This document shows positions 43,982 to 47,157 of a stretch of DNA of 64,000 nt, in pieces. The DNA comes from Chloroflexota bacterium (GTDB taxonomy: Bacteria > Chloroflexota > Anaerolineae > Anaerolineales > UBA4823). The notes below the pieces were generated by a model. That model was given only the letters and a program-made list of their open reading frames with translations, was not told the origin of the DNA and made no database searches. Within the stretch, counting starts at the first letter, position 1. Each line of letters starts with the position of its first letter. The DNA lies in assembly GCA_029265355.1 (NCBI GenBank), contig JAJUJL010000016.1, positions 56,802 through 120,801 of the forward strand, given 5' to 3'. Both the position numbers and the translations under genes were made by a program.

Positions 43982-44569
43982 ATGGATGCTCTAATCCTGC
44001 CCCAAACGGGAAGGCTGGGTGTATTGATTGCGCCGCGTCCGCTGCGCAACCGGTTGGTCACCGATCTGGCGGTGAGCCTGGCGCTGGCTGGCCCACTGCG
44101 CGTGCTGGACTGCGGCAACAGCTTCGCCGCCCACACCCTGGCACGCGAGCTGCGCCGGCGCACACCGCAGATGAGCGCTGCGCTACAGCGCATCCTGGTG
44201 GCACGCGCTTTCACCTGCCACCAGGTGGTCACGCTGCTCTCCACCGCAGAGAGCGCCGCCCAACCCATCCTGGTGCCAGAGCTGCTATCCACTTTTCTGG
44301 ATGAAAGCGTGGCGCTGCCCGCCCGCCGCCGCCTGCTGCAGTCGGCAATTGTGCACCTGCTTCGCCTGAGCAGCGCCGCTCCGGTGGTGGTCAGCGCGCC
44401 GCTGCAATCCGAGGGCCGCCAGCCCGGCACGCTGCTGCGTGGCGCACCCAAACAACAGCCCGACCCAACTGGCGAGCTGCTGGCGCTGCTCGAGCAGGCT
44501 GCCGGCAGCGTGTGGCGCTTCGAACTGCCCGACGCCCCAGCCGCCCCGCTGCGCTTGCCGGGATTCTGA
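43982..44569 (+). CDS. RecA/Rad51-like protein lacking a recognisable Walker A motif
   Basis: LRVLDCGNSFAAHTLARELRRR...QRILVARAFTCHQVVTLL and LLQSAIVHLLRLSSAAPVVVSAPL resemble post-Walker A Rad51/RadA segments; no GxxxxGK[ST]; SD CTGGAGG before ATG. Confidence 0.55.
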   Translation: MDALILPQTGRLGVLIAPRPLRNRLVTDLAVSLALAGPLRVLDCGNSFAAHTLARELRRRTPQMSAALQRILVARAFTCHQVVTLLSTAESAAQPILVPELLSTFLDESVALPARRRLLQSAIVHLLRLSSAAPVVVSAPLQSEGRQPGTLLRGAPKQQPDPTGELLALLEQAAGSVWRFELPDAPAAPLRLPGF

Positions 44570-44603
44570 AGCCCTGCATTTTCTGTGATTGACGAGGTTG
44601 CTT

Positions 44604-44870
44604 ATGGGACGCACTTTACCCGCTGTTACCCAGGTGTTTTTACAAGAGCAAGAGTCGTTTTCCCGTTTCCGCCGCGCCTTGCGCCGCAGCGACCAGCAAG
44701 CGCTGGACGAGCTGTTCGCCAACGCCCACCGTCACCTGGCTGCCGCAGCCTATGCCGCCCACGCCCTGCCCTTCGAGGTCTTCCTGCTGGCAATGCTGCT
44801 GGAAGAACACAAAGAAGTCCGGCGCCTGCGCAGCCTGCTGGAACAACTCAACCTGCCGCCTCATGCCTGA
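44604..44870 (+). CDS. small (~88 aa) conserved-context protein, cassette member
   Basis: MGRTLPAVTQVFLQEQESFSRFRRALRRSDQQALDELFANAHRHLAAAAYAAHALPFEVFLLAMLLEEHKEVRRLRSLLEQLNLPPHA; stop overlaps the polymerase ATG by 8 nt. Confidence 0.65.
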   Translation: MGRTLPAVTQVFLQEQESFSRFRRALRRSDQQALDELFANAHRHLAAAAYAAHALPFEVFLLAMLLEEHKEVRRLRSLLEQLNLPPHA

Positions 44871-47157
44871 GTACACGGGTTGGTTGCTCGATCTCTACGA
44901 CGACCTGGAAGAAGGACTGGTGTGCTGGCTGATCAGCGAAGCAGGGGAACGCCTGCGCTTGCGCCAGGATTTTCCGGTCACTTTCTATGCTTCTGGGTCA
45001 GTCGAGCGCCTGCGCGCCCTGTGGCGCTACCTGCGACCCCAGCCCGTGCATCTGCGTCGCGAGGAGCGCAGCGAGTTGTTCTGCCGCCAGCCCATCACCA
45101 CCCTGGCAGTGCAGGTTCCCAGTCCACAGGCCCAAGCGCGCCTGTTCGCCCAGGTTAGCGCTGCCTTTCCGGAACTGACCTTCTACGACGTCGATCTGCC
45201 CAGCGCCCTGCGCCACGCCGCCGCTTTTGGCAGCTTTCCACTATGCCGCTGCCGCCTGGAGGTAGACGCTCAAAACCGGGTGCAGGCCTTCCAGGTCCTG
45301 GACAGCCCCTGGGAGCTGGACCCAGCCCTGCCGCCGCTGCGCATCCTTTCCCTCGAACCGGACTGCGACCCCGCTCACGCTCAGCCAACACACCTGCGCA
45401 TCCGCTGCGGCAAAGCCGAGTACAACCTGCGCCTGGCAGCGGCGCGGCCTCTGCTGATCAACCTGGGCGCTATCCTGCAGCGCCACGACCCTGATATCCT
45501 GCTCACCACCTGGGGCGACACCTGGCTGTTGCCGCGCCTGCTGGAGCTTGCTGAGGCTCACGGCCTGCCGCTGCCGCTCAACCGCGATGCGGAGCGTCTA
45601 CCGGCCTCTCGCCCAGAATTGACCTATTTCTCCTACGGGCAAGTCATCTACCGCGGCGCGCAAGTGCATCTGTTCGGGCGCTGGCATATCGATGCCCACA
45701 ATGCCATGCTGTACCACGACTATGGCATGGAGGGCATCCTGGAGATGTGCCGCGTCACCGCCCAGCCGGCTCAAGCCGCCGCCCGTCTCTCGCCGGGCAG
45801 CGGCATCTCCGCCATGCAGATGATCACCGCCCTGCGCCAGGGCGTGCTGGTGCCCTGGCAGAAGCAGCAGGCCGAGCAGCCCAAGACCGCATTAGAGCTG
45901 TTCCATGCCGACCAGGGCGGCCTGGTGTACCAACCCATCACCGGCCTGCACAGCCACGTGGCGGAAATCGACTTTATCTCCATGTATCCCAGCGTGATGG
46001 TGCATTTCAACATCTCACCGGAAACGGTGGGAGTCGGCGCCACCCTTGCCGAACCCTATGAGACGGTGCCCGAACTGGATTTGCAGGTCGACTACAGCCG
46101 CAAGGGGCTGGTGCCCCAGACGCTGGCCCCGCTGTTGGAAAAGCGCATTGCACTCAAAGCCCGCCTGGCGGAGATGCCAGCCTGGGATGCGCGCCGCAGC
46201 GCCTACAAAGCCCGCGCCTCGGCTCACAAGTGGCTGCTGGTGACCTGCTTTGGCTACCTGGGCTACAAGAACGCCCGCTTTGGGCGCATCGAGGCGCACG
46301 AGGCGGTCACCGCCTACGGCCGCGAAGCGCTGCTGCGCGCCAAGGAAACCGCCGAGGAGCTGGGCTTCGAGGTCCTGCACATGTACGTGGATGGCCTGTG
46401 GGTGCGGCGCAGCGGCGCCACCCAGCCGGCTGATTTTCAGCCTCTTTTGGAAGAGATCGCCGCCCGCACCGGCCTGCCAATTGCCCTGGAAGGCGTTTAC
46501 CGTTGGGTGGCCTTCCTGCCTTCGCGCCGCGACCCGCGCTTGCCGGTCGCCAATCGCTACTTCGGCGCTTTCCAGGATGGCTCGCTCAAGCTGCGCGGCA
46601 TCGAGGCGCGCCGGCGGGACACACCGCTCTTCGTCGCCCAGGCGCAGCAAGAGATCATCTCCATCCTGGCGCAGGCGCCGCGCAGCGGGGCGCTGGGTGA
46701 ATACCTGCCGCTGGTATTTCAAAGCCTGCGCCGCCGCCTGGTCGCCTTGCGGCGCGGCCGGGTGCCATTGGAACACCTGCTGGTCAAGCACAAGCTCAGC
46801 CGCGAGCTGGAAAATTACCGTTGCCCTTCGGCGGGGGCGCGCGCTGCGATGCAGCTCCAGGCAGCCGGCAAGACCATGCGCCCTGGCCAGAACGTGCGCT
46901 TCTTGTACATGCGCGGGCGCCCCGGCGTGCACGCCTGGGATCTGCCCCACCCCCCGGAACCTCGAGGCATAGACCTGGCGCGCTACACCACCCTGCTGGT
47001 GCGCGCCGCTGCCTGCGTTCTGCAGCCGTTCGGCCTGGATGAGGGGCAGGTGCGCGAGCGCTTGCTGGTCGGCGGCTGCACCCTGTCCCTGCCGTTCGCC
47101 GCGCAAGTGATAGATATTACAAATAACCACAAATTAGAAAATAATTGTGCTTGTTGA
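44863..47157 (+). CDS. family-B DNA polymerase homologue with altered catalytic motifs (PolB2-like)
   Basis: Motif A EIDFISMYPSVMVHFNISPETV; motif B region HKWLLVTCFGYLGYKNARFGRIEAHEAVTAYGREALL; motif C MYVDGLWV in place of YxDTDS; exonuclease region ILSLEPDCDP / TTWGDTWLLPRLLELA without DxE; start MPEYTGWLLD. Confidence 0.8.
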   Translation: MPEYTGWLLDLYDDLEEGLVCWLISEAGERLRLRQDFPVTFYASGSVERLRALWRYLRPQPVHLRREERSELFCRQPITTLAVQVPSPQAQARLFAQVSAAFPELTFYDVDLPSALRHAAAFGSFPLCRCRLEVDAQNRVQAFQVLDSPWELDPALPPLRILSLEPDCDPAHAQPTHLRIRCGKAEYNLRLAAARPLLINLGAILQRHDPDILLTTWGDTWLLPRLLELAEAHGLPLPLNRDAERLPASRPELTYFSYGQVIYRGAQVHLFGRWHIDAHNAMLYHDYGMEGILEMCRVTAQPAQAAARLSPGSGISAMQMITALRQGVLVPWQKQQAEQPKTALELFHADQGGLVYQPITGLHSHVAEIDFISMYPSVMVHFNISPETVGVGATLAEPYETVPELDLQVDYSRKGLVPQTLAPLLEKRIALKARLAEMPAWDARRSAYKARASAHKWLLVTCFGYLGYKNARFGRIEAHEAVTAYGREALLRAKETAEELGFEVLHMYVDGLWVRRSGATQPADFQPLLEEIAARTGLPIALEGVYRWVAFLPSRRDPRLPVANRYFGAFQDGSLKLRGIEARRRDTPLFVAQAQQEIISILAQAPRSGALGEYLPLVFQSLRRRLVALRRGRVPLEHLLVKHKLSRELENYRCPSAGARAAMQLQAAGKTMRPGQNVRFLYMRGRPGVHAWDLPHPPEPRGIDLARYTTLLVRAAACVLQPFGLDEGQVRERLLVGGCTLSLPFAAQVIDITNNHKLENNCAC

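What the first reader, a model, noticed from the sequence alone, without database searches (positions are those of the whole stretch)
43982..47157. Three-gene cassette: Walker-less RecA-like protein + ~88-aa protein + inactivated-looking family-B DNA polymerase
Seen: three co-directional genes, the last two overlapping by 8 nt (ATGCCTGA), encode a RecA/Rad51-like protein, a small protein and a 764-aa PolB homologue. Established: the archaeal PolB2 family, with degenerate catalytic motifs, has a small set of bacterial relatives, and Sulfolobus Dpo2 (a PolB2) has been implicated in damage-induced mutagenesis. Bacterial ImuA-ImuB-DnaE2 cassettes likewise pair a RecA-like protein with polymerase-family proteins. 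Inference: this may be a bacterial PolB2-based damage-tolerance or mutagenesis cassette, with the small ORF as an uncharacterised accessory subunit.
Basis: partly seen in the sequence, partly recalled or inferred. Interest (0 to 1): 0.85.

Follow-up and report, generated by a model that had tools for sequence, protein, structure and literature searches.

The report
SOS-wired bacterial PolB2 mutasome cassette
The three genes encode a known kind of emergency DNA-copying machine, the PolB2 mutasome that bacteria acquired from archaea; in this group of bacteria a fourth gene, a small regulator that itself carries the DNA-damage (SOS) switch LexA, sits in front of it and probably turns it on.

Summary
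In detail: iRadA-like (43982-44569), PPB2-like (44604-44870, starts MGRT) and PolB (44863-47157) lie in one direction, the last two overlapping by 8 nt. Membership tests passed here: tree position, motif C first Asp replaced (Tyr508) with the second kept, no Walker A, RadA/Rad51 fold, MGRT arm, gene order. The canonical clamp motif, not a defining feature, is absent. What I did not find described is the wiring. A co-directional LuxR-HTH gene (43481-43885) lies upstream, with a LexA box (AGAACAAAAGTTCT, 43427-43440) in its promoter; the same box precedes lexA in this genome. Across relatives the box sits in front of the luxR-type gene in 35 of 40 loci (0.12 expected), even when that gene is elsewhere in the genome. 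Genomes without the luxR-type gene mostly carry the box directly before iRadA (22 of 29, against 6 of 56). A C-rich array precedes iRadA in many luxR-bearing genomes and is unique in this genome. Best reading: LexA controls a dedicated LuxR-type activator, which switches on the mutasome. Correlations are strong; activation is inferred.

The parts
43419..43448 (+). sigma-70-like promoter (TTCAAA-18-TACAAT) of the luxR-type gene, overlapped by the LexA box
   Evidence: only promoter match in 43380-44010
43427..43440 (.). LexA (SOS) box AGAACAAAAGTTCT
   Evidence: one of 9 exact AGAACN4GTTCT sites in the 5.05 Mb genome; another lies in front of lexA. Conserved before this gene in 35/40 loci
43481..43885 (+). 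luxR-type regulator, 134 aa: GerE/NarL-type HTH, helical N-terminus, no receiver or ligand domain
   Evidence: Pfam GerE 4e-15; model pLDDT 90.2 matches FixJ/NarL; homologues upstream of iRadA in 46 fetched loci
43908..43936 (+). C-rich direct-repeat array TTAACCC-N4-TTCCCC-N6-TTCCCC (repeat starts 11 and 12 bp apart), candidate operator
   Evidence: only match in the genome, even with one mismatch; 10-12 bp spacing enriched across loci
43931..43946 (+). GC-rich dyad TTCCCCCCGCGGGGAA followed by a T-rich stretch (terminator-like, or part of the promoter)
   Evidence: hairpins enriched in the same place across loci
43982..44569 (+). iRadA: RadA/Rad51 fold without Walker A; degenerate clamp-like C-terminus PLRLPGF
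44604..44870 (+). PPB2, 88 aa, starts MGRT
   Evidence: its profile hits archaeal PPB2 at 1e-16 to 1e-24
44863..47157 (+). PolB2, 764 aa; motif A D370 and motif C D510 kept, first motif C Asp is Tyr508; D350 (DxGG) kept; exonuclease degraded; TLSLPF near the C-terminus

Best explanation
A four-gene SOS-controlled translesion-synthesis unit. LexA bound at 43427-43440 represses a small LuxR-type regulator gene. After DNA damage LexA is cleaved, the regulator is made, binds the C-rich array in front of iRadA and activates iRadA-PPB2-PolB2. The three products assemble as in the published PolB2 mutasome model: PolB2 with iRadA docked through a RadA-like oligomerisation contact and a PPB2 trimer whose MGRT arm reaches towards the active site. 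The complex extends distorted primer ends past lesions without proofreading, giving survival at the cost of mutations. Shown here: genes, fold, family membership, LexA boxes, co-occurrence pattern, array. Inferred: binding, activation, complex, activity.
For: Trio conserved in one order and direction; PolB2 clade joined with 99% SH-aLRT support to archaeal PolB2s that have the same partners. LexA box in front of lexA and of the luxR-type gene in this genome; before the luxR-type gene in 35/40 loci against 0.12 in shuffles, and in 14 of 16 luxR-type loci with no iRadA detected alongside. Direct box before iRadA: 22 of 29 cases where the gene was not found in the genome, 6 of 56 where it is present, Fisher 2e-9. 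The luxR-type gene co-occurs with PolB2 (28/8/5/20, p 2e-5). Array present in 32 of 56 luxR-bearing cases and 3 of 29 without, and unique in this genome. Sulfolobus Dpo2 is an active extender polymerase solely responsible for targeted mutagenesis (PMC8764526, PMC7390963).
Against: Correlations are partly phylogenetic: independent-pair tests point the expected way (about 4 to 1) but are not significant. 24 of 56 luxR-bearing cases have no array by my count, so the operator definition is incomplete. No direct evidence that the regulator binds the array or activates rather than represses. The canonical beta-clamp motif seen in 51 of 76 relatives' iRadA is degenerate here.
Confidence: 0.6

Rival explanations
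1. One LexA-controlled operon: the box in front of the luxR-type gene drives read-through into iRadA-PPB2-PolB2, and the regulator does something else or only tunes the level.
For: Genes are co-directional with 96 bp between them; no consensus sigma-70 promoter is found in that gap in the window.
Against: In several genomes the luxR-type gene (still with a LexA box) was found apart from the cassette, whose promoter keeps the array and has no LexA box (L004, L011, L012, L014, L016). Terminator-like hairpins are enriched in the gap.
Confidence: 0.22
2. The luxR-type protein represses the mutasome (double brake) rather than activating it.
For: Binding direction cannot be told from sequence; the array and dyad sit close to the start codon.
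Against: A LexA-repressed repressor would lower mutasome expression after damage, the opposite of what damage-induced PolB2 operons do (PMC11791011) and of the relatives with a direct LexA box.
Confidence: 0.1
3. The polymerase is truly dead and the complex is structural (fork protection or regulation of replication), as first proposed for archaea.
For: Motif C first Asp replaced; exonuclease degraded.
Against: Motif A and the second motif C Asp are invariant across archaeal and bacterial members; Sulfolobus Dpo2 with a similar replacement is robustly active (PMC8764526).
Confidence: 0.08

Closest known systems
PolB2 mutasome (iRadA-PPB2-PolB2; Timinskas 2025, PMC11791011; Makarova 2014, PMC4104785)
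   Same: Three proteins, gene order, MGRT arm, motif C change, RadA fold without Walker A, SOS link
   Different: LexA acts here on a separate luxR-type gene placed in front; the papers' main text reports lexA genes near the operon but no such regulator; clamp motif degenerate here
Sulfolobus Dpo2 (PMC7390963, PMC8764526)
   Same: PolB2 family, replaced first Asp, no exonuclease
   Different: Archaeal, damage control through Orc1/Cdc6-type regulators rather than LexA (PMC11791011)
E. coli Pol V (UmuD'2C-RecA) and ImuA-ImuB-DnaE2
   Same: Work alike: SOS-induced mutagenic polymerase with a RecA-family partner and small accessory protein
   Different: Y- or C-family polymerases, unrelated small subunits; not homologous as systems
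E. coli DNA polymerase II
   Same: Family B, SOS-linked extender polymerase
   Different: Active exonuclease, canonical DxD, single subunit, outside the PolB2 clade

Membership tests
PolB2 mutasome | Polymerase falls in the PolB2 clade apart from PolB3 and Pol II | tested here: met
   35 PolB2 rows incl. window, halo, Thermococci-phylum and Leptospira-phage members together, SH-aLRT 99
PolB2 mutasome | First Asp of motif C DxD replaced, second kept | tested here: met
   Tyr508 / Asp510
PolB2 mutasome | Conserved D(K/R) motif before the palm | tested here: met
   Asp350 invariant in bacterial and archaeal rows; the next residue is Gln here, Lys/Arg in many
PolB2 mutasome | Inactive proofreading domain | tested here: met
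   ExoII Asp is Leu and about 45 residues with ExoIII missing in the alignment to Pyrococcus Pol
PolB2 mutasome | RadA/Rad51 homologue lacking ATPase motifs and the N-terminal domain | tested here: met
   no Walker A in the sequence; fold match to RAD51/RadA core
PolB2 mutasome | PPB2 with N-terminal MGRT | tested here: met
   44604-44870 starts MGRT; also 61 of 76 relatives as started by script, others MGNV or start-call problems
PolB2 mutasome | Bacterial gene order iRadA-PPB2-PolB2 | tested here: met
   one genus has the cassette split
PolB2 mutasome | Clamp-binding motif in iRadA or PolB2 (common, not required) | tested here: inconclusive
   canonical QLxLF-type end in 51/76 iRadA; window has PLRLPGF and, in PolB2, TLSLPF, both without Gln
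PolB2 mutasome | Heteropentamer and polymerase activity | not testable with these tools
   only single chains can be modelled; no bench data
LexA/SOS regulon | LexA box of the organism's own type in the control region | tested here: met
   AGAACN4GTTCT before lexA and before the luxR-type gene; LexA over cut-off
ImuA-ImuB-DnaE2 | Y-family ImuB with DnaE2 in the cassette | tested here: not met
   polymerase is family B; the genome's single Y-family match is elsewhere, a 403-aa DinB-like ORF
E. coli Pol II | Canonical DxD and exonuclease, groups with Pol II | tested here: not met
LuxR/NarL-type regulators | GerE-type HTH | tested here: met
   Pfam GerE 4e-15; fold match to NarL/FixJ

The most novel reading that the evidence does not exclude
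A LexA-controlled, single-target LuxR-type activator forms a relay (LexA, then regulator, then mutasome) that delays mutagenic polymerase expression until damage persists. It would be a transcriptional counterpart of UmuD cleavage in Pol V, and is exchanged in evolution with direct LexA repression.
Probability: 0.45. Interest if true: 0.7.

Novelty: new variant of a known kind. Interest (0 to 1): 0.52.

Why it matters
The protein trio is known, but how bacteria that borrowed it from archaea connected it to their own SOS system has not been described in the papers I could search. The two wirings (direct LexA box, or LexA through a luxR-type gene) give a clear prediction testable in cultured Anaerolineae such as Leptolinea tardivitalis (direct box) and Longilinea arvoryzae (luxR-type gene, although it also keeps a box before iRadA), and a route to asking whether SOS mutagenesis is timed by a relay.

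Tried and rejected
Pfam, PADLOC and PDB sequence searches with the 195-aa protein found nothing; the fold search was needed. PADLOC's homing-endonuclease hit on PolB covers the polymerase end of that model and is not evidence of a homing function. Classing the enzyme as Pol II: rejected by tree and motifs. Chance for the LexA boxes: rejected by shuffles. The apparent loss of partners in one genus (L002, L005, L031) turned out to be a split cassette. A phylogenetic test of luxR-type gene against box was not significant and is reported as such.

Full report
Observation. The three genes are present as described. The middle gene starts at the ATG at 44604, giving 88 residues that begin MGRT. The polymerase matches family B and its best NCBIfam models are type B polymerases, below their cut-offs.

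What the trio is. It is the PolB2 mutasome. Makarova et al. 2014 (PMC4104785) described the operon of PolB2, an inactivated RadA and arCOG07300 in archaea and several bacteria, in some with lexA. Timinskas et al. 2025 (PMC11791011) named PPB2 and iRadA, modelled the heteropentamer and found bacterial operons only in the order iRadA-PPB2-PolB2. The tests made here agree. The window PolB sits with bacterial PolB2s, which join PolB2s on haloarchaeal plasmids, two archaeal genomes of the Thermococci phylum (as inferred from their neighbours) and Leptospira phages, apart from PolB3 and Pol II. The archaeal and phage members have the same partners in the same order. Motif A Asp370, motif C Asp510 and Asp350 are invariant in all rows, while the first motif C Asp is Tyr508. 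The exonuclease has lost ExoII Asp and ExoIII. iRadA has no Walker A and its model matches RAD51/RadA.

Conservation. Both partners are found in 103 of 111 PolB2 loci (some loci are duplicates). The exceptions are contig ends, L106 (only 510 bp upstream), and one genus in which luxR-type gene, iRadA and PPB2 lie together and PolB2 alone elsewhere on the same chromosome. PolB2 occurs in 36 of 61 relatives, 18 of 33 good genomes.

Wiring. In 92 upstream regions of iRadA a dyad AGAAC-N4-GTTCT was far above shuffles. In the window's genome this motif occurs 9 times in 5.05 Mb (3 for the reversed control). One site lies in the promoter of lexA and one at window 43427-43440, between the hexamers of the predicted promoter of a luxR-type gene at 43481-43885. 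Across relatives the box precedes that gene in 35 of 40 loci within 160 bp, 22 exact, against 0.12 in shuffles. This holds for 14 of 16 luxR-type loci where no iRadA was detected alongside. Cases where the gene was not found in the genome mostly have the box in front of iRadA instead: 22 of 29, against 6 of 56 with the gene (Fisher 2e-9). In 14 genomes with a direct box the gene was searched for and not found. Some genomes are incomplete, which may explain part of the seven cases with neither.

Candidate operator. Between the luxR-type gene and iRadA lies a C-rich direct-repeat array (TTAACCC, TTCACCC, TTCCCC) with 10-12 bp spacing, 33 adjacent pairs against about 1 in shuffles. It is associated with the presence of the gene in the genome (32 of 56 against 3 of 29), including genomes where the gene was found apart from the cassette. 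In the window's genome it is unique even with one mismatch. Terminator-like hairpins are enriched in the same gap. A GC dyad of similar form is also seen in promoters without the gene next door, so its role is open.

Mechanism. I infer that LexA controls the LuxR-type protein and that this protein activates the mutasome, which then extends primer ends past lesions, as shown for Sulfolobus Dpo2 (PMC8764526, PMC7390963). The genome has only one Y-family match, a DinB-like ORF, so PolB2 is its likeliest inducible mutagenic polymerase.

Limits. The associations are not independent of phylogeny: pair tests go the expected way but are not significant. The array definition was derived from the same loci. 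Nothing here shows binding, activation, complex formation or polymerase activity. The literature library holds open-licence papers only, so earlier mention of the regulator elsewhere cannot be excluded.

Noticed in passing
L152:4700-7454, L153:3180-6232 (Leptospira phages KF114879, KF114878): Leptospira phages carry the whole trio; PPB2 is annotated too short (in KF114879 the frame upstream starts MGRTIQPYSW and overlaps the iRadA end). The main text of PMC11791011 does not mention phages; related loci occur in IMG/VR.
   Followed up: partly
L003 and L187 (genome G003): One genome with two PolB2 cassettes, one with a direct LexA box and one with the luxR-type gene.
   Followed up: partly
L165 (G012), L164 (G030), L166 (G027): Split cassette: LexA box, luxR-type gene, iRadA and PPB2 together; in G012 and G030 PolB2 is elsewhere.
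   Followed up: yes
L083: Anaerolineales-like cassette (62% identity) on a contig binned as Methanofastidiosum, probably a binning error.
   Followed up: no
L199:1501-1514: Another LexA box of the window's genome lies 32 bp before a 399-aa ORF that looks like a radical-SAM protein.
   Followed up: no
window 43959-43970: Perfect 12-bp palindrome ATCAAATTTGAT just before the ribosome-binding site of iRadA, not checked in relatives.
   Followed up: no
window 48815-62526: Two very large ORFs (1866 and 2704 aa); the first reads as a non-ribosomal peptide synthetase with an acyl-AMP ligase-like start.
   Followed up: no
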